The notes below the pieces were generated by a model. It was not told the DNA's origin, did no database searches, and worked only from the letters and a program-made list of their open reading frames with translations. This document shows, one piece after another, positions 1 through 14,860 of a DNA stretch of 32,196 bases (within the stretch, counting starts at the first letter, position 1; each line of letters starts with the position of its first letter). Origin of the DNA: Anaerolineae bacterium (GTDB taxonomy: Bacteria; Chloroflexota; Anaerolineae; Aggregatilineales; J027); the NCBI GenBank assembly GCA_019913005.1, contig JAIOHL010000114.1, positions 1-32,196 on the forward strand, given 5' to 3'. Made by a program: the position numbers and the translations under genes.

Positions 1-1678
1 GATAGGGCAGCACCATGACCGACACCACGCCGGGCACATTGGGACGGCGCTGTTGAGGGCGGAATTTTGGCAGGACTTCTACCCGCCCCAAGCGAACCCC
101 CGGTGTATCCGCCGCCAGTTGGCGATAATCCTCAACGGTGATCGCGCGGTCACGATGCCGAAAAATAGCCGGAATCCGCAATTCCGCCTGCGCGATGGTC
201 TCCGCCATTTCGCCGCCGTCGGTGGGTGCCATCTGCTGCACCTTGAGTTTGGGCACGGCCACGTTTGGCAACGTCGCTTGGGCGGTAATTTCGGTCAGGC
301 TGCCGGGGGGCAGATTACCCTCAATCCCGCCGCCAGCCCGCATGAAGGCGACCCTCACCCGTGCGCCAGTGACTGGCACTCGCCCGCGCAGACCATCGCC
401 AAAGGTGATGGTGACTGCTTCGGGGTCAAGCCGAAAAACCGCGTCGTCCCGTCCGGCAAGGGCTAAATCGGGCACGGCCTGCCATTTCACATAACCTTGA
501 TTGACTTCCTCCACTTCGATTTCGAGCGAGTTCGGGTCTACTGAGCCAGCCCGCAACGACATGACCTGACCGGATGCGCCATCGCTTTGCCCGACCACCC
601 GTCCGCTAATCGTTTGGCGCTGGTCAATTTCAACGGCGTTGATGCCTATCCAGCTTAGGGACAAGCTCGGTACTTGTTCATTAGGCCGCACACGGGTAGG
701 CCGCAAGCGCACCCACGCCACCAAGCGATCTGCTTTGTCAGCGGCGTCCAAGCGCGGTGGTTGGTCGCCGACCCCGGCCTGAAAATTGCGTCGGACATCG
801 TTCGAGGGGGCCGCGATAAATTCGGCGGCGGGCAGCGCCAAACGAATCACCCCTCGCTTGGTCAATTTGTCGGTGTTGTCTTCAATCACGTCCAATGTGA
901 AGTAGTCAGGCCGCCCCAATGTGTCAACCCCGGTGATTTCCCACGTATGCGCGATGCCCCCACGTTTGCCAATATCCTCAAACGAATCCGGCAGGCGGAT
1001 GGTTGGGACAATGCCGATGTTGAGCAATTGCTGACCACCAGTGGGATTCGCGCCGAGGGCCTCCTTGACCGCTCCAACCAATTCCTTTTTGGGGGCTAAT
1101 AGGGCCAACCATAGGCTGCGGTCAACCGTCTGGCTGACAATCTCAAAACCGTTGGGTTCCATCGCCCCACCGGGAAAGGCCGTCGCGGTGACGTAGGGAC
1201 GGGCTTGGGAGAGGCCATAGATCGAGCGCAAACCCGTAATGACTTCGCGGAGGTCTTGTTCTTCATCATCCGTCAGGCCACGTTTGTAATAGACCTCGGC
1301 GGTAATGGGCAGCACGGTCAGCTCTTGCAGCGTTTCAAAATGAACAGGCTTCGTTAGGGTCGCCAGTGGACGGATGCTGGTGGCACTGGTCGTCGTGTCA
1401 CTATCATATTGGACGCTGACCACCCCCCGGGCCGGAATCGCCGGACGCAGGGGAATCCCCAACAACCGCAAGAACGCTAATCGCTGGCGCTCTGGAATCA
1501 GATTGGCCCGATACAATAAGGTGTCTGCCAACCATGCAAAAAGCTCAATCAGGGTTCGCCCGGGGTCGCCATCACGCGGGTTTGTCCAATCCGGCGTATG
1601 GGCCGGAATACGTGCAATCAGTTCGTCCACAAGGTCTTGATAACTACGGTCATCCAGCGCAGGGGGGATAAATGGCAT
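1..1678 (-). CDS. Baseplate J/gp47-like assembly protein of an eCIS (3' end cut by window edge)
   Basis: The frame is open from an ATG at 1678 to the left edge, giving about 559 residues with no stop. The start reads MPFIPPALDDRSYQDLVDEL, followed within 50 residues by DGDPGRTLIELFAWLADTLLYR. This opening is typical of putative baseplate assembly proteins of the Afp11/gpJ (T4 gp6-like) family, which build the wedge ring around the hub of contractile injection systems. A later ITFGDGLRGRVPVTGARV stretch and a GIEGNLPPGSL motif are classic baseplate-J signatures, and the visible end (RDRAITVEDYRQLAADTPGV) is the conserved C-terminal J segment. It follows the gp25-like gene by three bases, so it is probably the next gene of the same transcript. 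A second J-like protein (Afp12) would be expected to the left. The family call is strong; the total length is unknown. Confidence 0.93.
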   Translation of the reverse strand, partial: MPFIPPALDDRSYQDLVDELIARIPAHTPDWTNPRDGDPGRTLIELFAWLADTLLYRANLIPERQRLAFLRLLGIPLRPAIPARGVVSVQYDSDTTTSATSIRPLATLTKPVHFETLQELTVLPITAEVYYKRGLTDDEEQDLREVITGLRSIYGLSQARPYVTATAFPGGAMEPNGFEIVSQTVDRSLWLALLAPKKELVGAVKEALGANPTGGQQLLNIGIVPTIRLPDSFEDIGKRGGIAHTWEITGVDTLGRPDYFTLDVIEDNTDKLTKRGVIRLALPAAEFIAAPSNDVRRNFQAGVGDQPPRLDAADKADRLVAWVRLRPTRVRPNEQVPSLSLSWIGINAVEIDQRQTISGRVVGQSDGASGQVMSLRAGSVDPNSLEIEVEEVNQGYVKWQAVPDLALAGRDDAVFRLDPEAVTITFGDGLRGRVPVTGARVRVAFMRAGGGIEGNLPPGSLTEITAQATLPNVAVPKLKVQQMAPTDGGEMAETIAQAELRIPAIFRHRDRAITVEDYRQLAADTPGVRLGRVEVLPKFRPQQRRPNVPGVVSVMVLPY

Positions 1679-1681: not shown

Positions 1682-2077
1682 TTATCGCTCCAATTCCAAT
1701 GTCAGCGCCACTTGCTGAGGAGCACCCGTGCGCCGCAGCCGATAAGCGATTTCGATTTGGATACGCGATGGCTCGTCCGGCAGTTCTTCCACATCCACGC
1801 GATCAAGGATGATACGCCCTTCCCATCGTTCCAGCGCGGCAAGAATGGTATCGCGGATGCGGGTGCGCGTGGTCAGGGTATTGGGTTCGTGCAAAAAATC
1901 CGCCAGCCCTGCGCCAAATTCGGGTTTCATTAATTGCTCACCCGGACGGGTACGCAAAATAATTTCGATGGATTGACGCACGCTGTTTTCCAGCATCGGA
2001 TACTTTAATTCACCGTTGGCATCGGGGAAGACCCATAGAGGCCAACCCACAAGTGGTTTGTCAGGTCGCGTCGTCAT
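1682..2077 (-). CDS. gp25-like baseplate wedge protein
   Basis: This 131-residue protein begins MTTRPDKPLVGWPLWVFPD. The central part (SVRQSIEIILRTRPGEQLMKPEFG, then LADFLHEPN) is the hallmark of the T4 gp25/phage W family (Afp9), which forms the inner baseplate core and nucleates sheath assembly; the E-R/P-G-E-x-x-x-x-P-x-F-G pattern is the conserved lysozyme-like core. I chose the ATG at 2077 rather than one 17 codons upstream because it overlaps the stop of the preceding gene by four bases (ATGA), a common translational coupling arrangement, and has a GGTGG motif just ahead. It lies between the 509-residue gene and baseplate J, the usual gp25-then-J order in eCIS loci. Confidence 0.92.
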   Translation of the reverse strand: MTTRPDKPLVGWPLWVFPDANGELKYPMLENSVRQSIEIILRTRPGEQLMKPEFGAGLADFLHEPNTLTTRTRIRDTILAALERWEGRIILDRVDVEELPDEPSRIQIEIAYRLRRTGAPQQVALTLELER

Positions 2078-3603
2078 GCCGGTTCCACCTTCGGATAGGG
2101 AATACAAATCTTGACGAACAACATCCATTGGAAAATTAAGTTAAGGATCAAAATGAACATAAACAGCAGCATAAAAGCAACGATAAACACAATCACAAGA
2201 CTGAGACTGCATATCCAACCAACACCGAGGGTTGGGCCAGAGGACGGTTTTTTCTTGTCCAACAGCCCATCCAACTGACCAAGCAGATTGAACATTTCCT
2301 CTGGCATATTGAAGGCGACGTTGGGTTTAAGCCCTTCCAAAAAACCGGGGGTAAATGGATTGGGCACATCAATCATGACGGGTGGGCCTTCACCGGATTC
2401 ATACCATGCCGCGATGCTGAACGGCTCACTGTAGGCGCTCCAAATCAGGTCGGGGGGGCACTCATCATCGTGACGAACGCGCACAAAGGCCCGCACCGCA
2501 TACAGCCGTCCCCGTTCATCAAAGCGCCCGAAATTGGGTTGGATGCTTTCTAAGCGCGTCGCCCATGCCTGATATAATAAATTGGCAAATCGTTCAGCCA
2601 GTCCCGATTCAATGGCAGGCCAAGAGACGGGCATTTCAAACCGGATGTCGCTTCTTTTCTCAATCAATGCCCCAATCGCCATCTCCAAAAACAGTAAAGC
2701 GGAATAATGCGTTCCATCCGTCAATTCAACTTCCAGCGCCATAATCGCCTCAGCGAGTTCCTGCGATACCGAACTGGTGCCGAACAGATCATAGGTAATA
2801 TAAAGTTCGAGCAGGATGGAGATAAACCCGTGCAGATTGGCGTCGTTCGCGTCGTATTGGGTAATCGTGTACCCACCCAATGGCAGCGAACGCACATCGC
2901 CTTCACGTAAATAGGGCGGGATGGGTGGCCCAAAATCTTTAAGGGCGGGGTCGCTCGGCGGCAAGGTGCCATATTCGGAACTCGTGACATCCACCATGCC
3001 AAATAACAGAGTGCGTTCGGCGGACTCACAAACCGCCGGGGGCAGCACAAACAGCGGCGCGACCTGTTCACTAAAGCCGGCAGAGGCAGGTCGAATCAAG
3101 GCATACCGTGCATCCAGTTCGGGGTGTCCGAGGGTCAATACCGGGCGGCGCAATGGGTCGGGGTCAAGTTCTTCTTCCAGACTATTCTGAAAACCAACCC
3201 ATCCTTTGATGGCATTCGCGCCTTTGCCGGATGTCCGCCAGCCCTCATAATAACCGGGGATGGGTTGGCCTTTGTCAACCCCCAAGCGGCGCACCACCAA
3301 GCCCGCACTCTCAATCTTTGAGGGGTCTACACGCGGCTGGCCGAATGAGCCGTACAAGTCACAGACAGCCTCTAAGAGGGCGACATTATAGACACGCTGC
3401 ATGGGCAGCATCAGCTTGAGATACCCGTTTTTGTCGCGCCGCCTCGCCACCCCGCCCTCAACTGATGCCAGACCGGGCGTGCCAGCGCGTAACTGGTCAA
3501 ACAGCGCCTCCACAAAGTCGGGGTCGGTGCGTTCAATCAACGTTGGTGCGAGTATTGCCGTATTGGAGCGTGCCCCGCGTAAAATAACCGGATGGTCTAC
3601 CAT
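2074..3603 (-). CDS. eCIS baseplate-region protein of unknown function with a hydrophobic C-terminal tail
   Basis: I do not recognise a named family in this 509-residue protein. Residues 1 to about 455 are mixed polar sequence without signal peptide; a serine/proline/glycine linker (KKKPSSGPTLGVG) follows, and residues 463-497 are an almost unbroken hydrophobic run (bases about 2113-2217) ending in a short tail with a Lys, a Cys and prolines. One long membrane helix or a tight helical hairpin would fit, with the large N-terminal part in the cytoplasm. It overlaps the spike gene by seven bases and the gp25 gene by four, so it is cotranscribed with core baseplate genes. Inference: it may link the baseplate to a membrane. 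Membrane-bound systems are known (thylakoid-anchored CIS in cyanobacteria, the CisA membrane protein of Streptomyces CIS), but I cannot show homology to their anchors. Confidence 0.8.
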   Translation of the reverse strand: MVDHPVILRGARSNTAILAPTLIERTDPDFVEALFDQLRAGTPGLASVEGGVARRRDKNGYLKLMLPMQRVYNVALLEAVCDLYGSFGQPRVDPSKIESAGLVVRRLGVDKGQPIPGYYEGWRTSGKGANAIKGWVGFQNSLEEELDPDPLRRPVLTLGHPELDARYALIRPASAGFSEQVAPLFVLPPAVCESAERTLLFGMVDVTSSEYGTLPPSDPALKDFGPPIPPYLREGDVRSLPLGGYTITQYDANDANLHGFISILLELYITYDLFGTSSVSQELAEAIMALEVELTDGTHYSALLFLEMAIGALIEKRSDIRFEMPVSWPAIESGLAERFANLLYQAWATRLESIQPNFGRFDERGRLYAVRAFVRVRHDDECPPDLIWSAYSEPFSIAAWYESGEGPPVMIDVPNPFTPGFLEGLKPNVAFNMPEEMFNLLGQLDGLLDKKKPSSGPTLGVGWICSLSLVIVFIVAFMLLFMFILILNLIFQWMLFVKICIPYPKVEPA

Positions 3604-4295
3604 AGATTTCCTGCCCCCGGTGTATAGGTCTTGCCGGAAACAAGGTCAGCAATGAGCGTGGTGCATTTTACAGTGTTGGAAAAAGTGGCGGTGGCGGCGT
3701 TGACCGTGACATTTGGCGCGGTGACGGTCATGCCGGACGGCGCATTGACGGTAACACTGGCGGAGGTTGTAATCGTGACCCCGCCTGAATCGAGCGTAAT
3801 GGATGTGCCGGTGATTTTGAGTTCAATTTTGCCCGACCCAGAGGCATCCAATGTGGCGCTGACCAGTTGCTGCGGGGTGCTAAGAATAATTTTTTCCGTC
3901 CCCTGCCCCTCCTCCACAATCGCCACACGAGTGCCGTTTTTCCCTTTGAACGCCCAGCGATCTACGCGATTGCCGCCAATTTGTTCGGATGGACGATCAC
4001 GCCCGTTCCAAAAACTACCGACGACTACCGGGAAACGTGCATCCCCATTAACAAAACTCACCAGCACTTCGTCATCTACATTGGGGATGAAAAACGCGCC
4101 CATGTTTGGCCCCGCAAATGGCACCGCGACCCGCGCCCACATCGGCCCATCATGCCCATCAATCCCGTCGGCATTCAGCAGGCGCACCTGCACCCGCCCA
4201 AGATTCTGGTCATCTTCAACGGATTCGACCAACGCCAGATAACAGGCATTCAGCACGCCTTCGCGGGGTCGTTCAAAAATCGCATCCCTGTCCAT
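3597..4295 (-). CDS. gp5/VgrG-like spike protein (OB-fold plus beta-helix)
   Basis: This 232-residue protein starts MDRDAIFERPREGVLNACYL. Residues about 15-100 form the OB-fold typical of gpV/gp5 and VgrG (ALVESVEDDQNLGRVQVRLL, then GPMWARVAVPFAGPNMGAFF and DDEVLVSFVNGD, and PVVVGSFWNG). From about residue 140 the sequence turns into short Thr/Val/Ser-rich strands (SITLDSGGVTITTSASVTVN) as expected for a trimeric beta-helix needle; no lysozyme domain is present. It would cap the inner tube and puncture the target membrane. The ATG at 4295 has AAGGG upstream and lies 14 bases after the hub stop, so I prefer it to an ATG 13 codons earlier inside the hub gene. In Afp, hub and spike are fused (Afp8); here they are two adjacent genes. 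Confidence 0.9.
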   Translation of the reverse strand: MDRDAIFERPREGVLNACYLALVESVEDDQNLGRVQVRLLNADGIDGHDGPMWARVAVPFAGPNMGAFFIPNVDDEVLVSFVNGDARFPVVVGSFWNGRDRPSEQIGGNRVDRWAFKGKNGTRVAIVEEGQGTEKIILSTPQQLVSATLDASGSGKIELKITGTSITLDSGGVTITTSASVTVNAPSGMTVTAPNVTVNAATATFSNTVKCTTLIADLVSGKTYTPGAGNLW

Positions 4296-4309
4296 CCACG
4301 TTTGTCCCT

Positions 4310-5395
4310 TCAACCGCGTCCTAAAAAGGCACACTCTGCCTCAAAATCCGTTTTATAGCCGTGCTCCAAATCGAAGCGATGGCAAACCCGCACCACATAA
4401 TAGGTGTTGTCAAATCGCCCACCCAAGCCAGACAAGGTGACATGTGTTCCCACACGCAGGGCGGGATTGCCCTCAGCGGTGGCTTCCACACAAACAAATC
4501 GCCGTGCCCGTTCATCAAACGCTGCGTCCGCCAATGCCCGCGCCTCCGTTTGGTTGTTCAGCCCTAGATGGCTGATATGATGCGAACGGCTCTGTAATGC
4601 GGTCTGCCCCAAAACATCCGCACCCTTGCGCCCCTGCCCCGGCCCCGGATTCGCTCCGGTGCTGCTGACACTAATCGTGCTACCTTGTGCGGCGTCCCAT
4701 CCGGTGAGGGTCACAGCGGTGACTTGATGGGCAAGGTCAGCCATCACCCGGACGGATTGCAATTCATTGGGCAAAGCAAGTTCCAATGTGCCGCGCCGGA
4801 CATCCTTGCGGGCCGAAACGTGCAACTCATCCCCCACGATTTGCAGATCGGCGTCATAGCGGGCCAATAATCGCCGCAAAAACGCCAAGCCGCTTTCATT
4901 AATTTGGGCCTGTGTGCCGACATTCTGGCTCAGGCCATCTATCGTTGGCGTCAGGTGAAGCGTATCGGCGATATCCCGCACAATAAAATCAAGCGTTTTG
5001 TTTTCATAAACTTTGGTGCGGCGCGTCAGCCGACCCGTCAAAAGGGCATCCTCCGCCATTACCTGCAAAGTGGGTGGAGCAGTGCTGCTAAATGCCGCCT
5101 CTAGCCCGGTAATCATCCCCCGGAAAATCTCATTTGGGCCGGTTTCATCGCCCGCATAGACTTTGATCTGAGCGCCCAAACGCAAAATGCGGTCATTCTC
5201 GAAAGCATAGTTCCCCATACCTTGAGTATCGCTGGCAAGGTTGCTGATCCGCATTTCCAATGTCGAGAAACCACCTTCGGCCTCGTTCATTTCCAGCATT
5301 TCCATCTGTTCACTGACCATCGGATAAGCCTGTTGGTCAATTTGCACGGTGGGCCGGGCAGTATAGATGGCTTCGCGTGTCGGTGCGTCTGTCAT
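4310..5395 (-). CDS. gp27-like hub protein (phage late control D family)
   Basis: This 361-residue protein matches the gpD/gp27 pattern: an N-terminal segment (YTARPTVQIDQQAYPMVSEQ) that sets out the first barrel, then FRGMITGLEAAFSSTAPPTL, the conserved LDFIVRDIADTLHL stretch and SGLAFLRRLLARYDADLQIV at about 165-190, and a C-terminal barrel ending in YYVVRVCHRFDLEHGYKTDF. These are standard features of the trimeric hub joining tube and spike. The spike gene follows by 14 bases. A Gly/Pro-rich linker (TGANPGPGQGRKGADV) separates the two barrels. The length is normal for a stand-alone hub; the spike half seen in fused Afp8 proteins is encoded separately next door. Confidence 0.9.
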   Translation of the reverse strand: MTDAPTREAIYTARPTVQIDQQAYPMVSEQMEMLEMNEAEGGFSTLEMRISNLASDTQGMGNYAFENDRILRLGAQIKVYAGDETGPNEIFRGMITGLEAAFSSTAPPTLQVMAEDALLTGRLTRRTKVYENKTLDFIVRDIADTLHLTPTIDGLSQNVGTQAQINESGLAFLRRLLARYDADLQIVGDELHVSARKDVRRGTLELALPNELQSVRVMADLAHQVTAVTLTGWDAAQGSTISVSSTGANPGPGQGRKGADVLGQTALQSRSHHISHLGLNNQTEARALADAAFDERARRFVCVEATAEGNPALRVGTHVTLSGLGGRFDNTYYVVRVCHRFDLEHGYKTDFEAECAFLGRG

Positions 5396-5578: not shown

Positions 5579-6976
5579 TCACCCTCCTCGAAAGCGAATG
5601 CGTGCTTGGGCACTCGCGCTAAACTGGACATCGGCACTGCCACTGGCTCGGACATCCACCTGCCCCGCGACGTTATAGGTCGCACTGCTGCCATAGCTAT
5701 AACTTTCGGTCTTGGTCTGAAGCAGGCCGCTGGTATTCAACTGCACACTTTGCTGCGTCACTTGGGTATGAAGTCCGGCAAACGCACCAAAGGTCGCTGG
5801 GATATGGGCTGAGGCGCTGCTGCCAAAGGTCGGAGTAAAATAGGCCGCTGCCGCATAACTCCCGCCAGCGCTGGCCTTAAATGACGACCCCGCACTCGCG
5901 CCAAACCTTGCGGCTGCACCCGCCGAAAATCCAGCACCTCCTCCTGCTGCGAAACCTGCCCCCGCACTCGCCCCAAAGCCTGCTGATACTCTGGTACTCG
6001 TGCCAAACCCTGCGGCTGCACCCGCCGAAAATCCAGCGCCTGCTCCAGCGGAAAATCCCGCCGATGCCCCAGCACCTGCCCCAAAACTGGCGGATGCGCC
6101 CGCGCCAAACCCGGCACTTGCACTCGCGCCAAGTCCTGCCGATGCCCCTGCTGCCGCGCCGAAAGCTGCACCCGCACTTGCGCCAAACCCTGCCGATGCG
6201 CCCGCGCTGATACCAGCACTGGCCCCCAATGACGCCCCAGCACTCAGTCCGATGCCAGCCGAAATGCCTGCACTGGCCCCCAATGCGGCGGATGCACCAA
6301 CGGCTGCCCCGGCTGAGGCAAACGCGGTGGGCGGGCCAAGTGGAATATCAGACGGAACGCTGACCGGGCCATCGGGAAATCGCATAGATTCAAGCGCATT
6401 TGCCAACGCTAACAGCCGCCCCGCCGTTGGGTCACCTGCGTTCGTCGCCACACCGGTAGTGCTTTGGGCGCCGGGGACTTCGACTGCCTCGTTAGACGGG
6501 CCTTGCGCATCTTGACCCTGCGCCGCAAAAACCACATCTTGTGTCGAAAGGGTGAGGTTAATCTTGGAGCGCAACGGCATCCCATTGGGGGCAAAAAAGT
6601 CCAATGTCTCTTTAAATTGCTCTACAATGCCCTTAAAACTATAAGTTCCCCACCAAAATTCGACGACGGGTGGCACTTGGCGGCTGTTGCGGCGCTGGCC
6701 CTGCGGCATGGGCCGTAACATGCGGGCAATCTTAACGGTATGAGTACGTACATCCTCGGTGCTAGAGGTATAAGTCGTGTCAAAATATAGTTCCATCGTC
6801 AGTTTGGCGGTGCTGCTGCTGACGAATTGGCGTCGCGGATTATTTCGATCAGAATCCAAACGATTAACAATCTGATATTCCAACGAGGCCGGATTGAAAT
6901 GCACATCAAACTGCTGACCCTGATTTGGGCCACTCGTGATTTTGAAGTATGCTTTGGTGACGGTGATCTCGCTCAT
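5579..6976 (-). CDS. Afp7-like CIS tube/baseplate protein with a long Gly-Ala-Ser repeat tail
   Basis: Residues 1-150 match the N-terminal domain of Afp7/gp53-like CIS tube proteins: KAYFKITSGPNQGQQFDVHF with FNPASLEYQI, LTMELYFDTTYT, PVVEFWWGTYSFKGIVEQF and LRSKINLTLS. This domain joins tube to baseplate. Relatives usually continue with a LysM domain and end near 200-250 residues. Here the LysM position (about 180-210, GRLLALANALESMRFPDGPV) is short and poorly preserved, and is followed at 218-376 by about 160 residues almost wholly of Gly, Ala, Ser and Phe (GASAGF-like units), then a 90-residue Ser/Gln/Tyr-rich end. The last codons lie just ahead of the DUF5908-like gene. The tail could be a fibrous or flexible extension on the baseplate. 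Confidence 0.88.
   Translation of the reverse strand: MSEITVTKAYFKITSGPNQGQQFDVHFNPASLEYQIVNRLDSDRNNPRRQFVSSSTAKLTMELYFDTTYTSSTEDVRTHTVKIARMLRPMPQGQRRNSRQVPPVVEFWWGTYSFKGIVEQFKETLDFFAPNGMPLRSKINLTLSTQDVVFAAQGQDAQGPSNEAVEVPGAQSTTGVATNAGDPTAGRLLALANALESMRFPDGPVSVPSDIPLGPPTAFASAGAAVGASAALGASAGISAGIGLSAGASLGASAGISAGASAGFGASAGAAFGAAAGASAGLGASASAGFGAGASASFGAGAGASAGFSAGAGAGFSAGAAAGFGTSTRVSAGFGASAGAGFAAGGGAGFSAGAAARFGASAGSSFKASAGGSYAAAAYFTPTFGSSASAHIPATFGAFAGLHTQVTQQSVQLNTSGLLQTKTESYSYGSSATYNVAGQVDVRASGSADVQFSASAQARIRFRGG
5849..6325 (-). repeat. Degenerate tandem repeat encoding a Gly-Ala-Ser-Phe tract
   Basis: The stretch encodes residues about 218-376 of the Afp7-like protein. The units are variants of GASAG and GFGAG/GFSAG. 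At DNA level longer near-copies are visible: the block around 5905-5945 (CTTGCGGCTGCACCCGCCG, AAAATCCAGC) recurs at about 6009-6048. The phase is kept throughout, so the expansion was compatible with translation. Because the repeat is rich in GCN and GGN codons, the opposite strand also stays open for long distances; those reverse frames are artefacts. Confidence 0.85.
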
Positions 6977-6998
6977 GGTGGCTCAGTCTCCCCAGTGA

Positions 6999-7505
6999 CT
7001 AACGCGGCTGCAATCGTTCCAATGGGTTGGTTGGATACAGCCCTTCGTGGGCCAAATGCAGTTCTTCAATGCCGACTTCAAAATTGCTGGCGTTGAGATC
7101 TGCCATCTTAAATTTGATGGGCAGGGCACGCACCAATTTCCACGCGAGCTTGCCGGTGCCGTCTTCGCTAAACAGGGTAATTTTGGCGTCCAACCGATAG
7201 GCCAAAGCGCCGCTCGTACTGCCATCGTTGACCCTCTGAAACCAGCCCCACAGATCACTAGGAGGGATGATGCCTCGTTTTAGAATGACCGTCGCAAACG
7301 TAACCGGGCCAGCACGCTGCACCGCCCCATAATTACGCCCGCCTTCCTTAATCACCTTTGGCTCCATCGTCGCTTCCAGGCCAGTACATTCGGTGAAGCT
7401 ACCTTCGCAAATCGAGGTCGGACTGGCGACGGCCTGACTGCCCAATAGATGGACATAGAATTCGGCGTGAAAGCGAAAAATATGGAGCGGTGCAAGGTCG
7501 GTCAT
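6999..7505 (-). CDS. eCIS inner tube protein (gp19-like), second copy
   Basis: This 168-residue protein has the gp19/Hcp-like tube fold signatures: FHAEFYVHLLG at the start, FTECTGLEATMEPKVIKEGG (the conserved C/S-G-L-x-x-x-x-E-x-x-x-x-x-E-G-G region), VTFATVILKRGIIPPSDLWGWF, and the final EVGIEELHLAHEGL. Rings of this family stack into the tube that carries cargo. Its ATG at 7505 overlaps the stop of the second sheath gene by four bases. With the tube at 9192-9653 it makes two tube genes; in Afp, Afp1 forms the shaft and Afp5 is the adaptor near the baseplate. Its place next to the Afp7-like gene suggests the Afp5-like adaptor role. Confidence 0.9.
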   Translation of the reverse strand: MTDLAPLHIFRFHAEFYVHLLGSQAVASPTSICEGSFTECTGLEATMEPKVIKEGGRNYGAVQRAGPVTFATVILKRGIIPPSDLWGWFQRVNDGSTSGALAYRLDAKITLFSEDGTGKLAWKLVRALPIKFKMADLNASNFEVGIEELHLAHEGLYPTNPLERLQPR

Positions 7506-9169
7506 GATGCCCCTCCGGACTGAAGTGAGACCCGCCCACCTTCGTTCATCGCCAGCAAAATCGTAATGGTTTCAATCGGGGCGGCGGCGTTGAAGATGAC
7601 CTGCACAATCACCCGCCCATTATCAATATCATTTTGGGTCATGGTGGTGCGGTCACAGCGTACATCAAAGGCCTCAGCAGCAGATGGCCCACGCAGCGCC
7701 CCTAATTCCAACAAATCGAACAACAGGCTTTCCATGCGATCTTTAAGACTGGCCCACAGACGCTGACCAGATGGCTCGAACACCGATTCTTCGCCGATGC
7801 GCCGGGCCGCCCGCACGATGACCGACACCAGCCGATTCACTGCCGCCGAGCGATAGATTTCATCCAAGCTGGTTGTCACATCCGAAAGCAGCGCCAAACC
7901 CTGTGGCGTTGGCCCAAACAGCGACACCCGTTCCATCAAACTGTGTGAAGTGCGGGCGAGTGGGTGGTCAAGATAGGGGCGGTGCATTTGCCCGCGACTT
8001 AATTCGGGATACACCCCACCAATTTCGGATGGCTGTTGTTGGGCCGCGCTACGGAAAGCCCCGCGTACCATTGTATTGCGAGCCAATATCCCGACCAGCA
8101 CCGCGTCAGGGGGTTCAAGTCCTTCGGGAAGCCGTTCCGCCAAACGTGTTTGCAGCCACGGAAAACCTAGTTGCACAAAAGCACTGGCAATCCCTTGCAG
8201 GCCATTATCGAGCCGGCTGCTCAATGGCGAGTCTGCCCTTTTGACCAAGTACCCCATCAAATCGGTATCCGGCGCTAAGGTATGTGGGACAGATAAGGCG
8301 CTCGGCGCTGACGGCACTTCCCACAATTGGGGTAATGGCAGCGCGGCGACCAACTGCACTTCTCGCAGATGGCGTTTGAGCAAGTCCCCCACCAAATGAA
8401 CCGCCCGTGCCCAATCCGCATAACCAGCTTCATCGCAGCGCGGTGCAGGCAAAATCTTGGCGGGGTCATCGTCCGGCACGACATCCGGCTCATCGTCAGA
8501 ACATTCGCTGAATTGTTCGGGAATCTCAAAAACGGGTGCTGGCGGCGACATCACACTGAAATGATCCACCCCGACCAGTTCCGGTAGGTCTGGCAGGCAC
8601 ACAAATGAGACATCTGGCAGGCCATACAAATGCCCAATGCCCCACCAGCTTTGCCGATCTACCGGATTGATTTCCAGCAGGCTAGGATAACCCGGCAGCA
8701 GTTGGGCCAGTTGGTTCATGCGACTGGCACGCTCCGTTCCATACGGTAGCGGATCACCCACCCGCACTACATAACATTTGCGTCCACCCTGTGCAAAAAA
8801 CGAACGCACTGCCGCCCCCAGATAGGTTACAGGAGGAGTTTGCTGTCCGGTCTGAACCGTTGAGCGGTTCTCCCATTCAAACAGAAAGTCAAACACATCC
8901 CATGAATCTATCGGAATTGGCAGGTCACGTAGCTCGTTCAATGGGGGGTGCGGTCTCTCGCTGGGCTTGGGTGGGATCAGCCAACCGTTGCGATCTAGCC
9001 ACTCAATAATGGCAGGTGGGATGTCCATCTGCTCACCCTTGATTTGACGGCGGCGCACCAGTCCGATGAAACAAGCAATATCGGCCCGGTTGGGGCTGCT
9101 TGCCACGGGGGGCACATAATGCCGAAAATCCAAACCAGTCGTCAGCGTCATCGCCAAAAATCCCACCAT
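7502..9169 (-). CDS. Second, divergent contractile sheath protein
   Basis: This 555-residue protein keeps the conserved sheath C-terminus: SVFEPSGQRLWASLKDRMES, then FDVRCDRTTMTQNDIDNGRV, which matches the other sheath of this locus at equivalent positions. GAAVRSFFAQGGRKCYVVRV at about 115-135 is the conserved N-terminal half signature. It lacks the usual P-G-V-Y-V-x-E opening and instead starts MTLTTGLDFRHYVPP with an inserted 60-residue segment; an acidic patch (ECSDDEPDVVPDDDP) lies near 220. Multiple sheath paralogues are normal in eCIS (Afp2, 3 and 4); a divergent one may form the layer next to the baseplate. The start is uncertain: an ATG at 9151 is also possible. Confidence 0.88.
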   Translation of the reverse strand: MVGFLAMTLTTGLDFRHYVPPVASSPNRADIACFIGLVRRRQIKGEQMDIPPAIIEWLDRNGWLIPPKPSERPHPPLNELRDLPIPIDSWDVFDFLFEWENRSTVQTGQQTPPVTYLGAAVRSFFAQGGRKCYVVRVGDPLPYGTERASRMNQLAQLLPGYPSLLEINPVDRQSWWGIGHLYGLPDVSFVCLPDLPELVGVDHFSVMSPPAPVFEIPEQFSECSDDEPDVVPDDDPAKILPAPRCDEAGYADWARAVHLVGDLLKRHLREVQLVAALPLPQLWEVPSAPSALSVPHTLAPDTDLMGYLVKRADSPLSSRLDNGLQGIASAFVQLGFPWLQTRLAERLPEGLEPPDAVLVGILARNTMVRGAFRSAAQQQPSEIGGVYPELSRGQMHRPYLDHPLARTSHSLMERVSLFGPTPQGLALLSDVTTSLDEIYRSAAVNRLVSVIVRAARRIGEESVFEPSGQRLWASLKDRMESLLFDLLELGALRGPSAAEAFDVRCDRTTMTQNDIDNGRVIVQVIFNAAAPIETITILLAMNEGGRVSLQSGGAS

Positions 9170-9191
9170 ATCCCATTCACGTTACGGGTGA

Positions 9192-9653
9192 TTAGGCCGA
9201 GGGCGAGTCCATCAGGATTAACCCCTCTGCCGAGAGTACGATTTCTTCCATGGCTACATCTCCACCGCCTTTGGCTGCCAGCGTCGGCCCGGTATATTTC
9301 ATCGGGATGACCTGTTGCAATTGCCACGATTGGACGGGTGTGCCGCTTTCATCCAACAGGGTAATTACCACTGTGCGTTTGACCGTCGCCCCGCGTGTGC
9401 CAGATGGCGAACGGGATTGTTGAACCCATGCCCAAAAATCGCGTGAATTCACGATGCCGCGTTTGAGGGTGACATCCCCCACCGTGTGCATCCCCGGAAT
9501 TTTGCGAACGTGATTTTCGCGCTCGTTGCCTTCTCGATATTCCGAAAGTTTAAGCTCAGTTGTTAGGCCACTGACATCGGAAAAGCCACCGACATCCTGC
9601 CCGTCCATTTTCACTACAAAATTAAACGCACCATAGGGGTCTACACGCGGCAT
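9192..9653 (-). CDS. eCIS inner tube protein (gp19-like), main copy
   Basis: At 153 residues this is the canonical tube size. It begins MPRVDPYGAFNFVVKMDGQD, followed by GGFSDVSGLTTELKLSEYRE, VTLKRGIVNSRDFWAWVQQ and, at the end, AMEEIVLSAEGLIL, all diagnostic of Afp1/Pvc1-type tube proteins. GGAGGG sits nine bases ahead of the ATG, and the gene follows the large sheath by 21 bases, so sheath and tube are made from the same message. It is likely the major tube subunit; the copy at 6999-7505 is more divergent. Confidence 0.93.
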   Translation of the reverse strand: MPRVDPYGAFNFVVKMDGQDVGGFSDVSGLTTELKLSEYREGNERENHVRKIPGMHTVGDVTLKRGIVNSRDFWAWVQQSRSPSGTRGATVKRTVVITLLDESGTPVQSWQLQQVIPMKYTGPTLAAKGGGDVAMEEIVLSAEGLILMDSPSA

Positions 9654-9674
9654 GTTGCTTGCCCTCCTCTAACT

Positions 9675-12020
9675 TTAGCTTCTTGCATCCGCCGTCTTTT
9701 GCCCGATACGGAAAATGACAAATTCGGCGGGTTTTATGATGGCGACCCCCACGAGGCAAATCAGACGCCCGTTGTCGAGGTCATTTTGGGTCATGGTGCT
9801 GCGGTCACACCGGACAAAAAAGGCTTCTTTTTCGTTATTGCCCAAGAGCGCACCGGACACCCATTCGTTATATAAAAAGGCTGAGACGGTATCGGTGATG
9901 TTTGACCACAGGCGCGGGCCATTTGGCTCAAACACAGCCCACTGCATCCCCCGGTCAATCGAATATTCCAGATAGTTCATATAGCGCCGATCACTGACAT
10001 ATTTAAATTCGGGGTCGGAACTAATCAACCGTGCGCCCCAAACCCGATAGCCCCGCCCAGATAACAGGCGCAGGCAGTTGATACCGAGCGGGTTAAGGAC
10101 TTCTTGCTGGGCAAAGTTAACATCCCGCTCAAACCGCAAAGCACTGCGCACCACCTCGTTCGCCGGAGCTTTATGCACCCCACGCTGAATGTCATTGCGG
10201 GCATAAATCCCGCACACATAACCAGAGGGGGGCAAGACCAATTCACGCGGGATACGGTCATCACCGGGGCGGGCCAATGGATTGGAGACGATCACCCAAG
10301 GATAATAAAGCGCGGCATATTTAGAATCAATCTGGCTGCGCTGAGTACGCACCTCGCCCAGACTTTGACCGGGCTGCGAATCCAGCACTGCGATGCGATA
10401 GGCCCGGCGCGTTTCGGCATGGGTAATGAGTGCCCCTTGTATCCCTTGTGCATCGCTGTAGGAGGAAGCACCCGGCCCAGCGACAATGGCAATATCTTCG
10501 AGTTTTTGGAGTTCTTCCAACGCCGCTTCATAGGCCGCTTGGGTTGGCTCAAGGCCATCACTCCCACTGGACAGCGTAATACTTCGGCTGCTGGTTGCCC
10601 CAAAAAAGGCCGCTTGCAGTTCAAACGGGCTGACGCCAGTGCCCAGTTGTAGGAAGAAGGGGTTTTCAAGCGCATCCGTCCGGCGGGTGGGATGCTCGGT
10701 CAAAACCGTGCCAATATAGCGCGGGTGGCTTGGTGCAAAGCCCATACCCTCATAGGTAATGGTTTTGCCGTCAGCATCTACCGCAATCGCCGTAATGGTC
10801 AAGAGGGCCGCTTGGGTCGTAGCGGTTAATGACGCCATGTTCAGGGGTGCATTCGCCGCGTCCGCCCAACCACCTGTGCCTTTCACATAATAGGTCAGCG
10901 TATCACCCGCCGCGCCACTCACTGGCCCTGCCGCCAACCCCAAAACATTTCGCACTGTAGCATCGGGCGTATCCCGCACTGCTAATGTCGCCGCTGTGCC
11001 TGTGGCGGTGGTAGACAAAACCAAACGGCCCGTCGTCGCATCAAGGGCTGCTTGTGCCGGAATTGTTGCTGCCAGCAGCAGTGCATTGATTTCATCGGCG
11101 GTCACGGCTGCCAGACTGCCCACATTGTTATTGGCAGGATTTAGCGTTCCTGCCCCGGCTGGGAACATGGAGGCGGCAGGATTCGCATTCACACTAATGC
11201 TGGAGCGTGTCCCCGCCGTGTCGCTGCCAATGATAAGTTGATTGGTATTGCTCAACGTCGCATAGCCGCCGCGCAGTCGAGCATTCAGCGCCCCGACAAA
11301 TTGGGCACGGGTCAACGTCCCCGCAGCGAGGGTGACGGTTTGTGCCGCGCCATCAATCGTCACGGTCAAGGTCGTGGCTTGGGCGAGATTGACATCGTCA
11401 GGTAATGGGTCGGCGGCGGTGACTTGAGCATGTTCGCCGCGAAACGTGATTGTCCCATCCGTGCCGTTGACGGTCAAAGCCAACTGCGCCCCATCGGTGA
11501 GGCCAAAAGGCGCCATACCTCCGACGAGACGGGCGGTGGTGGCGGGATTCGCTCCTCCCACACGTATCATTGACCCCACTCTGGCGTTGTCCATGCCGCG
11601 CTGCGTGGTCAGGGCTGATACTTCAATCAGCGTAATCGCGCCGTTGCCGCCAGAGCCGGGGAAACGGGCCACAAAACGCACCTGCTCGGTGGCATCGGCA
11701 GTAGCGACCAATTGGGGTGAAACAGCCGTCGCGTTGCCGCTGGCAAGGAACACCCGCGACACGTATAGGCGTGACCCCCCTTCGGTAAAAAAGGCCCGCA
11801 CCGCATGGGCAAGGTAATTCGTCCCAAAACTCAGATCTTCCAATCCACCGTACACCTGCTCAAAATCGCTCAGGCTGGTGATGAGTTCAGGGGTCTCTCC
11901 AAAGGGGCCTGTGCGAGTCGGCCCAACAAAACCTGCCGTGCTCGTGCCCACCCCCTCGATGGATTTAGAGCGAAAGCTGGTTTCTTCGACATACACGCCC
12001 GGGGCTAAATATTCTGGCAT
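9675..12020 (-). CDS. Large contractile tail sheath protein
   Basis: This 781-residue sheath protein opens MPEYLAPGVYVEETSFRSKS and has HAVRAFFTEGGSRLYVSRVF at about 85-107, both diagnostic of tail sheath proteins. The conserved end includes WAVFEPNGPRLWSNI and FFVRCDRSTMTQNDLDNGRL, with a typical sheath extension at the C-terminus. AAAGG precedes the ATG. Afp2- and Pvc2-type sheaths are roughly 350-500 residues; the extra length is between about 110 and 480, a Thr/Ala/Val-rich region with beta-sandwich character (TTLTVTIDGAAQTVTLAAG). In sheath proteins such insertions project outward from the tube. It is the first sheath of two and probably builds the contractile trunk. Confidence 0.95.
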   Translation of the reverse strand: MPEYLAPGVYVEETSFRSKSIEGVGTSTAGFVGPTRTGPFGETPELITSLSDFEQVYGGLEDLSFGTNYLAHAVRAFFTEGGSRLYVSRVFLASGNATAVSPQLVATADATEQVRFVARFPGSGGNGAITLIEVSALTTQRGMDNARVGSMIRVGGANPATTARLVGGMAPFGLTDGAQLALTVNGTDGTITFRGEHAQVTAADPLPDDVNLAQATTLTVTIDGAAQTVTLAAGTLTRAQFVGALNARLRGGYATLSNTNQLIIGSDTAGTRSSISVNANPAASMFPAGAGTLNPANNNVGSLAAVTADEINALLLAATIPAQAALDATTGRLVLSTTATGTAATLAVRDTPDATVRNVLGLAAGPVSGAAGDTLTYYVKGTGGWADAANAPLNMASLTATTQAALLTITAIAVDADGKTITYEGMGFAPSHPRYIGTVLTEHPTRRTDALENPFFLQLGTGVSPFELQAAFFGATSSRSITLSSGSDGLEPTQAAYEAALEELQKLEDIAIVAGPGASSYSDAQGIQGALITHAETRRAYRIAVLDSQPGQSLGEVRTQRSQIDSKYAALYYPWVIVSNPLARPGDDRIPRELVLPPSGYVCGIYARNDIQRGVHKAPANEVVRSALRFERDVNFAQQEVLNPLGINCLRLLSGRGYRVWGARLISSDPEFKYVSDRRYMNYLEYSIDRGMQWAVFEPNGPRLWSNITDTVSAFLYNEWVSGALLGNNEKEAFFVRCDRSTMTQNDLDNGRLICLVGVAIIKPAEFVIFRIGQKTADARS

Positions 12021-12048
12021 TACAAAATCCTTTCACTCTCCAACAAGT

Positions 12049-12789
12049 TCATGGGATCGTCAGTGTAATCGTTTGAATCCGTCCGGAGGCCAATTGCACA
12101 TTTTGACTGGCGCTTGGACTCCGTGTTTCTAAGCTGTCTGGGTTTGGCAGGCCCGTCGCGGCGGGGTCAAACATAACTTGCACCCGCGCTTCTACCTGAA
12201 ATGTCACTACTTCATCGGTTTCTTCATCCCCCCACAGCGTCACCGGAATCCCCTCGATTCCAATAAGGGCTTCGCCGCGCTCATCCGTCATGCCGCGCCC
12301 CAAAACACCCGCCGGGCTTACTCGCTCAACCCGAACTAATGCTCCACCAACTCCCTGCCCACCGCGTTGCACACTTGCCCGAATGACGGCCCAACGTGAA
12401 CCGACTTGGGCGATGGGCGACGGAAACAGGCGCACATCTATGGGCAAAAAGATCGAGTCTGGGGCAGTCGGATTGATATTCCGAGGCAGCCGAATCGCAA
12501 ATTGGCGCGACAGGTAATAGCCTCGGCGATCCTCAACGGTTAAAGCAAAGTTCAGACTGCCAACTGCCGGGGTTGAGGGTGGGGCCATAAACGCCGCCGT
12601 GTGGTTTTCCAGTCCGGGAGCGGAAGCGATTACATAGAGGCCGCTTTGATTCCGCCAGAAACGGATGTCTGCTGCTGGCCCAATGCCCGTGATCACCACC
12701 GCATCCCGCACTGGCAGATTCAGGATGGCATCCACAAAACGAACCGCCCCCAACACTCGATTGTCTACGAGTTCAATCACCCGTGTCAT
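12049..12789 (-). CDS. eCIS accessory protein with a carboxypeptidase-regulatory-like beta domain
   Basis: The 246-residue protein begins MTRVIELVDNRVLGAVRFVD. I chose the ATG at 12789, which follows the DUF4255 stop by seven bases and has AGAGG upstream; an earlier in-frame start would lie inside the DUF4255 gene. Residues about 145-185 (GVGGALVRVERVSPAGVLGR, then GMTDERGEALIGIEGIPV) resemble a carboxypeptidase regulatory-like or transthyretin-like beta-sandwich, in which an inserted domain ends with T-D-x-x-G-x. The rest is beta-rich with no membrane segment. Proteins of this kind often sit between the tail terminator and sheath genes of eCIS loci; their role in the particle is not established. 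Confidence 0.75.
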   Translation of the reverse strand: MTRVIELVDNRVLGAVRFVDAILNLPVRDAVVITGIGPAADIRFWRNQSGLYVIASAPGLENHTAAFMAPPSTPAVGSLNFALTVEDRRGYYLSRQFAIRLPRNINPTAPDSIFLPIDVRLFPSPIAQVGSRWAVIRASVQRGGQGVGGALVRVERVSPAGVLGRGMTDERGEALIGIEGIPVTLWGDEETDEVVTFQVEARVQVMFDPAATGLPNPDSLETRSPSASQNVQLASGRIQTITLTIP

Positions 12790-12796
12790 ACGGCCT

Positions 12797-13405
12797 CTAC
12801 GCTTCCTCCCCAAATTGATAAAGGGTCGGGTCGTGGGCCATATAGGTATACCGTGTGGCGACCACTGGGCGACTTTCGGGCGGCGGGTCAACATCAATCC
12901 GCACGACTCGCGCTACATACGACACACTCAGATGGTAGGGTGGGTCAAGCGCATCCCAAATTCGCATCAAATCTTCGGTACTCATTTCCGCCAAAATCAC
13001 TTGAACTTGGTCTTCAATATCCCAATTGGCCTCTGGTGAAAGGGCCGAGCGATCTAATACCGGAAACATGTAGAGTTGACGCATGGCCCATGCCATAATA
13101 AGCTGCTCAGTTAAAGCTGAGTCCGCCCAAACAGTCATCAGATAATGCAAATCAACCGATAGGGGAATATCATTCGGGTTGGGTGTGCGCTGACGGCTGG
13201 TATGGCGCATATGCTCATTGACCATCACACGATACAAATAGAGGGATAGGGTTGTGCCGATATTATTACCAAGTGACGCCATTTCGCCGCTCGAAAGCAG
13301 CCGAAATTCACAGGCTTGAGAATTGCGTAGATCGTCGGGATAGGTATTTCGCAAAAAATTGATAATTGAATTCCCGACAGAATAAATAGATTGCAGGTTG
13401 CCCAT
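12797..13405 (-). CDS. DUF4255 (Pvc16/Afp16 N-terminal-like) tail terminator protein
   Basis: The 202-residue protein matches the DUF4255 pattern: a helical start (SIYSVGNSIINFLRNTYP), VNEHMRHTSRQR, and LSVDLHYLMTVWADSALTEQ, followed by LIMAWAMRQLYMFPVL, then SVSYVARVVRIDV and a C-terminal strand. DUF4255 is the N-terminal domain of Afp16/Pvc16, which caps the tube and sheath at the distal end and controls termination. It is the first structural gene after the regulators, a common position. The next gene starts eight bases after its stop. Confidence 0.92.
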   Translation of the reverse strand: MGNLQSIYSVGNSIINFLRNTYPDDLRNSQACEFRLLSSGEMASLGNNIGTTLSLYLYRVMVNEHMRHTSRQRTPNPNDIPLSVDLHYLMTVWADSALTEQLIMAWAMRQLYMFPVLDRSALSPEANWDIEDQVQVILAEMSTEDLMRIWDALDPPYHLSVSYVARVVRIDVDPPPESRPVVATRYTYMAHDPTLYQFGEEA

Positions 13406-13412
13406 GTGATGA

Positions 13413-13826
13413 TTAACTCACAGCGTCTAATTTTGCCAAGATGCGTATCCACTGCGTCAGGGCTTGCCCCGTTTGGAGCTTGATCCGTTTTTGGTGTAGC
13501 CCTAGCCAGTAAAGCGTCGCCTCATCATTTTGAAAGGCACAAACGATTATTTTTAAGAAAGGCTGTTCATTCAAAAGATGGCTGCATATGCTCGGCGGCT
13601 TATCCACCGCTTGTTCCGTCCCTAGGATGACCACGTCCGCTTCTTTGGCGGCCACCAGCAAATTGATTGAACCATGTACGGTGTGATGCACCACCATATC
13701 AGCCTGTGTACCGATATAGTGTTTTATCAGTTCCAGCCACATTTCTGGCATATCAGCAATCACAACCCGTATGATCGTGTGCCTGCCTTCTATGGGTGGC
13801 TCAATATCCATTGTTGCATCTTCCAT
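13413..13826 (-). CDS. Degenerate response-regulator receiver protein without output domain
   Basis: The 137-residue protein has a CheY-like layout: a first strand IIRVVIADMPEMW with one Asp of the usual acidic pair, an EADVVILGTEQ third strand in which the phospho-accepting Asp is Gly (residue 69), and a FLKIIVCAFQNDEATLYWL stretch that replaces the switch Ser/Thr region. There is no DNA-binding domain. Without the key Asp it cannot be phosphorylated in the normal way, so it may act as a protein-protein partner, for instance for the LuxR-type regulator upstream. It is the first gene of the eCIS block. An internal ATG at 13811, with GGAAGA ahead, is an equally good start. Confidence 0.7.
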   Translation of the reverse strand: MEDATMDIEPPIEGRHTIIRVVIADMPEMWLELIKHYIGTQADMVVHHTVHGSINLLVAAKEADVVILGTEQAVDKPPSICSHLLNEQPFLKIIVCAFQNDEATLYWLGLHQKRIKLQTGQALTQWIRILAKLDAVS

Positions 13827-13930
13827 CTACATAATCGTTGTTTATTAAGAATAGAATGTATTGAGTGGGTATCACGACTGTCCAGAGATATAAACGGGGG
13901 ACAAGAAAATATGTAGATCGAAAAACAGCG

Positions 13931-13952
13931 AGGATACAAAAAGGATACAAAA
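13931..13952 (-). promoter_or_regulatory. Two exact tandem copies of an 11-base motif ahead of the eCIS operon
   Basis: On the plus strand AGGATACAAAA occurs twice head to tail (13931-13941 and 13942-13952), followed by a third partial copy (AGG). The 11-base spacing equals about one helical turn, so the two copies would face the same side of the DNA. They lie about 110 bases upstream of the first eCIS gene. Regulatory function is inferred. Confidence 0.45.
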
Positions 13953-13999
13953 AGGTTCTATATCGGAGGTAGTTTTGACAAACTCTAACTGATGCAAAC

Positions 14000-14013
14000 T
14001 AGGGTCAACCCTA
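14000..14013. promoter_or_regulatory. Candidate operator: inverted repeat TAGGGT, CA, ACCCTA
   Basis: A six-base perfect inverted repeat with a two-base centre sits between the LuxR-type regulator gene and the first eCIS gene. Such short dyads are the usual size of sites bound by NarL/FixJ-type LuxR regulators, and one is encoded next door. A weak TATAGA box on the minus strand lies about 40 bases downstream (complement of 13957-13962). There is no T-run, so a terminator is less likely. Confidence 0.4.
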
Positions 14014-14067
14014 ATTTTGTCCGTCAATAAGCCAAGTTTTTAGGCTATCGTGTTTGCCAAAAAATCC

Positions 14068-14793: not shown

Positions 14794-14860
14794 AGAATTT
14801 GTCCAACTCCTTCCTTTTTGAGTTTAGCCTATTGAAAATATGAATTTTGTAAATTGACTA

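What the first reader, a model, noticed from the sequence alone, without database searches (positions are those of the whole stretch)
2110..3603. Baseplate-cluster protein with a C-terminal membrane-like tail
The sequence shows a 509-residue protein, overlapping the spike and gp25 genes, whose last 47 residues include about 35 consecutive hydrophobic residues preceded by a Ser/Pro/Gly linker. Known contractile systems can be free (Afp, PVC), thylakoid-anchored (cyanobacteria) or linked to a membrane protein (CisA in Streptomyces). A tail in a cotranscribed baseplate-region gene suggests anchoring of the baseplate to the cell membrane. Homology to known anchors is not established.
Basis: partly seen in the sequence, partly recalled or inferred. 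Interest (0 to 1): 0.7.

Follow-up and report, generated by a model that had tools for sequence, protein, structure and literature searches.

The report
Injection-machine protein with conserved membrane tail
One lineage of bacterial injection machines carries, where related machines keep their needle-tip gene, an unnamed protein ending in a strongly conserved, predicted membrane-spanning helix, which may dock the machine to a membrane in a way not yet described.

Summary
Window 2074-3603 (minus strand) encodes a 509-residue protein ending in one very hydrophobic segment of about 31 residues, the only strong membrane-helix candidate among 14 window proteins tested. It matches no Pfam, NCBIfam, PHROGs or PADLOC family. 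The tail is present in 20 of 20 related loci (window included; Chloroflexota, Pseudomonadota, mislabelled 'viral' contigs) with fixed Cys-to-Cys spacing, and is the most conserved part of the protein (14 sequences). The 20 loci share one gene order (hub, spike, tail protein, gp25, J); the 12 J proteins treed form one clade. New here: beside the spike, 16 of 19 CIS loci without the protein have a PAAR or PAAR-like tip gene; none was found in the 20. Their spikes end in YTPG[AV]GN[ILV]W (18 of 20, variant in two), absent from the other 19. Best reading: a spike/baseplate component that takes the PAAR place and inserts its C-terminal helix in a membrane, probably the producer's own, as a C-tail anchor like TssL. 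Own-membrane anchoring is inferred; target-membrane insertion or cargo remain open. Membrane proteins as such are not rare in CIS loci: 10 of 18 tail-negative loci carry another, unrelated one.

The parts
2074..3603 (-). Tail protein, 509 aa, no known family
2104..2223 (-). C-terminal helix, residues 461-500, with invariant Cys465 and Cys500; predicted membrane-spanning
2224..2394 (-). Linker, residues 404-460, low model confidence, with a short helix 435-448
2395..3603 (-). Soluble part, residues 1-403, mixed alpha/beta with a beta-sandwich-like core in the model
3597..4334 (-). Spike (Phage_base_V, gpV-like), separate from the hub
   Evidence: PF04717, E 2.8e-22
3600..3626 (-). Spike C-terminal peptide YTPGAGNLW, seen only in CIS loci with the tail protein
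1682..2077 (-). gp25-like baseplate protein; start at 2077 (ATGA overlap) inferred from a homologue
   Evidence: PF04965, E 2.2e-25
2..1678 (-). Baseplate J-like protein, cut by the contig end; cluster continues on contig C356
4310..5395 (-). Hub (Phage_GPD)
   Evidence: PF05954, E 9.9e-14
5579..6976 (-). CIS_tube-family protein with long Ala/Gly/Ser-rich C-terminal part
   Evidence: PF19266, E 1.1e-21
6999..7505 (-). Second tube-like protein (gp19 family)
7502..9169 (-). Second, divergent sheath
   Evidence: Phage_sheath_1C, below cut-off
9192..9653 (-). Inner tube protein (by position and by homologues in the same order; not run against Pfam)
9675..12020 (-). Main sheath
12797..13405 (-). 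Pvc16_N cap protein
   Evidence: E 1.2e-36

Best explanation
The protein is a lineage-defining component of the spike/baseplate of one CIS clade. Its soluble N-terminal part sits at or near the tip of the spike, in place of the missing PAAR tip, probably recognising the conserved C-terminal spike peptide YTPG[AV]GN[ILV]W. Its C-terminal helix is inserted in a membrane, most likely the producer's cytoplasmic membrane, as a C-tail anchor in the manner of TssL of the T6SS, so that the assembled particle is docked tip-first and can fire through that membrane. Shown by computation: the predicted membrane helix, its conservation, the fixed gene slot, no PAAR gene found in the stretches read, and the joint occurrence with the spike peptide. 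Inferred: contact with the spike tip, membrane identity, docking and oligomer formation.
For: Strong membrane-helix prediction in 14 of 14 family members tested. AlphaFold2 gives one helix 461-500 behind a low-confidence linker in both models, with confidence about 69-77 in residues 471-490 and lower at both ends. Tail mean pairwise identity is 0.60 against 0.26 for residues 1-461 in 14 distinct sequences; among three close relatives, 3, 9 and 10 synonymous and 0 non-synonymous codon differences in 52 tail codons. Gene order hub-spike-tail protein-gp25-J in 20 of 20 loci. PAAR or PAAR-like gene next to the spike in 16 of 19 tail-negative loci, none found in 20 of 20 tail-bearing loci; of 9 checked, 6 pass Pfam's PAAR cut-off. 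Spike peptide strict in 18 of 20, variant in 2 of 20, absent in 19 of 19 tail-negative loci. J proteins of the 12 tail-bearing loci treed form one clade, 100/100. Polar positions on one helix face, and Asp488 with a basic residue at 492 in 5 of 5 loci (0 of 14 with Asn488), suggest a packed helix assembly. No PF08786 (DcrB; recalled to include the Eag chaperones) match over the cut-off in 12 of 12 genomes; one below it, in G000. In the CIS stretches held of the 20 tail-bearing loci no other core or non-core protein has a predicted membrane helix, an ABC-transporter-like flank gene in the window aside, whereas 10 of 18 tail-negative loci carry an unrelated one: as if each lineage has its own membrane partner.
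Against: No membrane location, interaction or particle data. Shared gene slot and joint occurrence do not prove contact; within one clade they could be inherited together. Tail identity exceeds what a plain anchor needs. The charge after the helix is net positive in 15 of 20 loci, which the positive-inside rule reads as C-terminus inside, not outside. 3 of 19 tail-negative loci show neither PAAR nor tail protein, so a CIS may do without both. Little sequence beyond J is held for many tail-bearing loci, so another membrane protein or a distant PAAR gene could lie there. CIS in Chloroflexota and Deinococcota cells were seen unattached (PMC12998442, section 23 read), though not known to be of this clade. 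Sco4256 homologues in other CIS, with a chaperone-like (beta) domain and a membrane region, are read by their authors as cargo (PMC10020575, section 11 read).
Confidence: 0.43

Rival explanations
1. The protein is the tip of the expelled spike, and its hydrophobic helices insert into the target cell's membrane, opening or lining the passage, as hydrophobic tail-tip parts of some phages do (recalled: phi29 gp9).
For: Same slot as PAAR tips, conserved spike peptide, sequence-specific polar face and Asp-Arg/Lys pair in the helix; charge behind the helix net positive in 15 of 20 loci.
Against: Such a helix would need shielding in the producer; no Eag-type family match over the cut-off in 12 of 12 genomes. 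The protein is three to five times the size of the PAAR genes read and has a flexible linker before the helix.
Confidence: 0.27
2. It is a cargo or effector carried on the spike, with a membrane-acting C-terminal part, perhaps a distant counterpart of the Sco4256 group of Streptomyces, Cyanobacteria and Chloroflexi class IId CIS.
For: Gene next to the spike, where spike-borne effectors often lie (recalled); the two subfamilies share only 22-26% identity with the window protein's side; Sco4256 homologues have a pilus-chaperone-like first domain and then a membrane region, and are read as putative toxin (PMC10020575, section 11); the model here also has a beta-sandwich-like core.
Against: Strict position inside the structural block in 20 of 20 loci and inheritance with the J clade; no toxin or effector family match; no effector-like third domain after the helix (3-11 residues follow the pattern). 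The membrane proteins of 10 tail-negative loci do not match this family's profile at E up to 10. Sco4256 itself could not be compared.
Confidence: 0.14
3. The tail is not in a lipid membrane: it is a buried hydrophobic helix that packs inside the particle, for example in the hub or spike base, as an assembly plug.
For: Conservation is higher than usual for a lipid-facing helix; fixed Cys-to-Cys spacing in 20 of 20.
Against: Insertion energy of -1.1 to -5.4 kcal/mol in 14 of 14 members; flexible linker before the tail in the model.
Confidence: 0.13

Closest known systems
TssL (T6SS), C-tail anchored inner-membrane subunit (PMC3426401, abstract and outline seen)
   Same: Large N-terminal soluble part and a single membrane segment at the extreme C-terminus; serves a contractile machine
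   Different: No Pfam family match at E <= 1 for the window protein; gene sits between spike and gp25; T6SS membrane partners (TssJ, TssM) were not searched for
CisA of Streptomyces CIS (PMC12237407, section 7 and passages read)
   Same: Membrane protein encoded in a CIS cluster, proposed to bring the particle to the membrane
   Different: CisA has a largely unstructured N-terminus, then the membrane helix, then a conserved periplasmic domain; here only 3-11 residues follow the tail pattern and the N-terminal part is folded in the model. Sequences not compared
Sco4256 group of class IId CIS (PMC10020575, section 11 and passages read)
   Same: CIS-associated protein with a beta-type first domain and a membrane region; reported also in Chloroflexi
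   Different: Read as putative toxin, often with a third domain; class IId systems. The downstream membrane proteins of seven tail-negative loci form one family that may be this or another group; they do not match the tail family. Sco4256 itself was not compared
Cis13 of the thylakoid-anchored CIS (PMC8894136, passages read)
   Same: C-terminal membrane helix on a baseplate-attached protein
   Different: Cis13 is a tail-fibre-like trimer; its membrane helix was reported only in filamentous cyanobacteria. This family matches no PDB chain below E 0.1 by sequence
Hbor_38620 of haloarchaeal T6SS-like CIS (PMC11566945, passages read)
   Same: Lineage-specific putative membrane anchor of a CIS
   Different: Six predicted membrane helices, gene upstream of the core cluster
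PAAR spike-tip proteins
   Same: Gene slot beside the spike
   Different: No PAAR motif; three to five times larger than the PAAR genes read here; C-terminal membrane helix

Membership tests
Contractile injection system gene cluster | Sheath, tube, hub, spike, gp25 and J proteins in one block | tested here: met
CisA | Membrane helix followed by a conserved periplasmic C-terminal domain of about 150 residues | tested here: not met
   3-11 residues follow the tail pattern in 20 of 20 loci
CisA | Sequence homology to CisA | not tested
   no CisA sequence was fetched
Sco4256 group | Sequence homology to Sco4256 | not tested
   no Sco4256 sequence was fetched; architecture known only from PMC10020575
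TssL (DotU) | Single membrane segment at the extreme C-terminus | tested here: met
   by prediction only
TssL (DotU) | DotU/TssL domain | tested here: not met
   no Pfam family for the window protein at E <= 1; no TssL family among the two weak matches of the 10 members of A2
Cis13 (tCIS) | C-terminal membrane helix | tested here: met
   by prediction
Cis13 (tCIS) | Tail-fibre-like fold and sequence | tested here: inconclusive
   no PDB sequence match below E 0.1; fold searches without significant match
PAAR tip | PAAR motif | tested here: not met
   slot-gene profiles find nothing at E <= 1 in 20 of 20 tail-bearing loci
PAAR tip | Gene beside the spike, before gp25 | tested here: met
   20 of 20 loci
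T6SS membrane-domain (prePAAR) effector | N-terminal membrane helices with an Eag chaperone | tested here: not met
   helix is C-terminal; PF08786 over cut-off in 0 of 12 genomes, below it in 1
Membrane anchor (any) | Located in the producer's membrane and needed for docking | not testable with these tools
   needs fractionation and imaging

The most novel reading that the evidence does not exclude
A CIS clade has exchanged the free PAAR needle tip for a membrane-embedded tip: the spike ends in a dedicated peptide that plugs into a bundle of tail helices held in the producer's membrane, so the machine is docked tip-first by a single protein and fires through its own membrane gate, a mode distinct from T6SS, tCIS, eCIS and CisA-dependent CIS.
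Probability: 0.3. Interest if true: 0.85.

Novelty: new variant of a known kind. Interest (0 to 1): 0.66.

Why it matters
How CIS other than T6SS meet a membrane is open: for the Chloroflexota cytoplasmic CIS it is said that close CisA homologues are absent and the mechanism may differ (PMC12998442, passages read). Here is a conserved, unnamed candidate with a short sequence signature, found in Chloroflexota and Pseudomonadota, that can be tested directly, for example with the protein of Albitalea terrae. If it replaces PAAR, it also shows that the needle tip can be exchanged for a membrane component.

Tried and rejected
Single-sequence genome scan with P0001 gave no relative; the two-sequence profile did. 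Plasmid and phage collections: no match to three family members (two against plasmids, one against phages). PDB, Pfam, PHROGs, NCBIfam and PADLOC searches: nothing usable; single members have weak matches to PHROGs (best E 0.018) and Pfam (E 0.18). Fold searches: no significant match; VIA-align best Z 5.7 and 6.6, to unrelated beta-sandwich (Ig-like) domains, within the level the tool calls common. A hairpin of two short helices was considered: best pair about -0.35 and -0.22 kcal/mol, against -5.2 for 23 residues as one helix and about -7.0 for 31. Tail on other proteins: a tail-only profile matched below E 1e-3 only the 12 genomes already known to carry the protein, of 73; two more had weak matches, E 0.035 and 0.047. 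The full profile had one weak match, E 0.018, in G435, taken as chance. A split hub and spike is not exclusive to this clade: L050, L057 and L058 also have two genes. Tail_P2_I is not exclusive either (weak match on contig C205). Membrane proteins are not exclusive: 10 of 18 tail-negative loci (L020 not scanned) carry another protein with a predicted helix below -0.5 kcal/mol among 202 non-core ORFs; seven of them are one family. Selection and dropped rows: the tail-negative loci (18 plus L020) were chosen by me from the CIS_tube places, mostly on long contigs, and are not a random sample; two of them (L057, L058) had weak CIS_tube matches. L059 and L020 are second clusters of tail-bearing genomes. 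L058 (short J) and 8 of the 20 tail-bearing loci were not in the J tree. Two near-copies (L006, L007) were dropped from the conservation count. L032 and L036 are near-copies from one genus and both counted in the 20. The tail count read 0 because of a wrong spacing in my pattern; one search is the corrected count. The PAAR-like profiles were built from the tail-negative slot genes themselves, so 16 of 19 is partly by construction; of 9 of the 16 sent to Pfam, 6 pass the PAAR cut-off, 2 match PAAR_motif or DUF4280 below it, 1 has no match. PF05488 in 12 tail-bearing genomes gave matches in 4 (3 over the cut-off), all on contigs other than that of the tail protein.

Full report
What is there. 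The gene lies on the minus strand at 2074-3603 and encodes 509 residues. It stands in a CIS block: cap (Pvc16_N), main sheath, tube, second sheath, second tube, CIS_tube protein, hub (Phage_GPD), spike (Phage_base_V), this protein, gp25 and J. It overlaps the spike gene by 7 nt and gp25 by an ATGA at 2074-2077, so it is very likely co-translated with them. The window is a whole contig that ends inside J; the rest of the cluster is on contig C356 of the same genome, with a Tail_P2_I protein. A relative in the same order lies on a contig named as a MAG of Anaerolineae, a class of Chloroflexota, so the host is most likely a Chloroflexota bacterium.

The tail. Residues 469-491 have an apparent insertion energy of -5.2 kcal/mol; the next best segment of the protein is at +2.1, and the best of the 13 other window proteins tested is +1.8 (scale parameters recalled). 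In 14 of 14 family members the tail scores between -1.1 and -5.4 and nothing else scores below +0.5. Two AlphaFold2 models (7 and 12 sequences; mean pLDDT 64.8 and 70.4; pTM 0.56 and 0.61) both make the tail one helix, 461-500, after a low-confidence linker; confidence is about 69-77 in residues 471-490 and lower at both ends.

The family. It was found in 8 of 400 genomes sampled from the phylum, the window's own included, in 2 of 61 near genomes, the window's own included, in 3 of 398 genomes of the phylum of Albitalea terrae, that genome included, and in contigs of IMG/VR that are CIS clusters in the stretch read. In the 400-genome sample 69 have a CIS_tube match. All 8 with the tail protein are among them, each with CIS_tube on the same contig within 5 kb. 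A 14-sequence profile finds no further relative at E 1e-3 in the other 61, and a tail-only profile finds the tail in no other genome of 73 at E 1e-3. The protein thus looks specific to one CIS lineage. In a J tree of 12 tail-bearing and 18 tail-negative loci, the tail-bearing ones are one clade with support 100/100, spanning Chloroflexota and Pseudomonadota. The window's own genome also holds a canonical CIS on contig C205, with a fused spike followed by gp25 and no tail protein.

Constraint on the tail. Mean pairwise identity is 0.60 in residues 462-504 and 0.26 in residues 1-461 over 14 distinct sequences; the tail is the best 43-residue window of the protein. Three close relatives differ pairwise by 3, 9 and 10 synonymous and no non-synonymous codons in the last 52. 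The spacing between the two flanking cysteines is the same in 20 of 20 loci. Cys465, Ser466, Ala476, Phe491, Trp493, Cys500 and Pro502 are invariant in 19 distinct tails. Positions 481, 485, 488, 492 and 495, where non-hydrophobic residues recur, lie 3-4 residues apart, on one face. Asp488 goes with Arg or Lys at 492 in 5 of 5 loci, Asn488 in 0 of 14; one locus has Glu488 and Ala492. By identity the five lie in two subfamilies, so the pair may have arisen more than once. This is more than a lipid anchor needs and suggests that tails pack with each other or with a partner.

The missing tip. I read 18 tail-negative CIS loci of the same phylum and the second cluster of the window's genome. In 16 of these 19 a PAAR or PAAR-like gene lies beside the spike; of nine sent to Pfam, six match PAAR_motif over the cut-off, two match PAAR_motif or DUF4280 below it, and one has no match. 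In the 20 tail-bearing loci the slot-gene profiles find nothing at E up to 1, and that slot holds the tail protein in 20 of 20. PF05488 in 12 tail-bearing genomes gives no match on the contig of the tail protein. Several of these loci are short, so a PAAR gene further off is not excluded. The spikes differ at their ends too: YTPG[AV]GN[ILV]W in 18 of 20 tail-bearing loci, a variant in the two from one genus, and none in the 19 tail-negative loci. Slot, lost tip and changed spike end go together. The simplest mechanism is that the protein has taken the PAAR position at the spike tip and ties it to a membrane.

Other membrane proteins in CIS loci. As a control I scanned same-strand ORFs around the blocks with the same scale. 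In 10 of 18 tail-negative loci (L020 not scanned) another protein has a predicted helix below -0.5 kcal/mol, among 202 non-core ORFs; seven of these proteins form one family, and none matches the tail family at E up to 10. In the 20 tail-bearing loci, 99 non-core ORFs and the core genes gave none, a transporter-like flank gene of the window aside. But little sequence beyond J is held for many of these (six loci hold at most 101 bases). So membrane proteins are common in CIS loci, and this one may be the counterpart of a different one elsewhere.

Which membrane. A C-terminal helix of this hydrophobicity, made in the cytoplasm without a known shielding chaperone (PF08786 over the cut-off in 0 of 12 genomes, one match below it), should enter the producer's own membrane, as TssL does through YidC (PMC3426401, abstract). 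That favours docking. Against it, the charge just behind the helix is net positive in 15 of 20 loci, and CIS seen in Chloroflexota and Deinococcota cells by tomography were free in the cytoplasm (PMC12998442, section 23 read; whether those CIS carry this protein was not tested). Insertion into a target membrane remains open, and so does a role as cargo, which is how Sco4256 homologues, with a chaperone-like domain and a membrane region, are read (PMC10020575, section 11 read).

Known systems. Membrane links that I saw described are CisA (PMC12237407, section 7 and passages), Cis13 and Cis12 of tCIS (PMC8894136, passages), Hbor_38620 (PMC11566945, passages) and the T6SS subunits (PMC3426401, abstract). 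None has this build and gene place together. A 2026 survey divides eCIS baseplates into Afp12 and Tail_P2_I types and likens one Tail_P2_I group to T6SS baseplates (PMC12923769, section 8 read). Six tail-bearing clusters in which I looked (L003, L012, L066 of the window's genome, L067, L073, L074) carry a Tail_P2_I-type gene, which fits a T6SS-like machine, but this was not tested further. In the searches made and the passages read I found no description of this protein; subscription papers and preprints are largely not covered.

Verdict. Own-membrane anchoring is a good but unproven inference. The added facts (lineage, PAAR loss, spike peptide, helix-face covariation) make it a stronger and more specific hypothesis than the one in the finding.

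Noticed in passing
G000:C205 (L020) 6424-19043: The same genome carries a second, canonical CIS with fused VgrG-like spike and no tail protein; its first gene has an HExxH stretch like the DUF4157 proteins (family recalled, not searched).
   Followed up: partly
L047, L051, L052, L053, L054, L059, L060: Seven tail-negative CIS loci carry a related large protein with one predicted membrane helix downstream of J; it may be the Sco4256 or another group, and was not named.
   Followed up: partly
14068-14793: A LuxR/GerE-type regulator lies beside the CIS block, as reported for 25.8% of eCIS loci (PMC8213781, passages).
   Followed up: no
5579-6976: The CIS_tube-family protein has a long Ala/Gly/Ser-rich repetitive C-terminal half; long frames are also listed in G282, G319 and G326.
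   Followed up: no
7502-9169: A second, very divergent sheath gene between the two tube genes; also in the tail-bearing loci that hold this stretch and in L050.
   Followed up: partly
L039:6882-13943: In the ACE_CHL12 cluster, beside the AAA ATPase, a 2353-residue protein with annexin repeats, a candidate cargo.
   Followed up: no
L016, L017, L018/L021, L019/L022, L067/L068, L070, L072, L073, L074: IMG/VR 'viral' contigs that are CIS gene clusters in the stretch read.
   Followed up: partly
15220-15834: A relaxase-like ORF (weak TrwC match, below cut-off) near the CIS block; helicase- and methylase-like ORFs follow (by eye), which may mark a mobile element.
   Followed up: no
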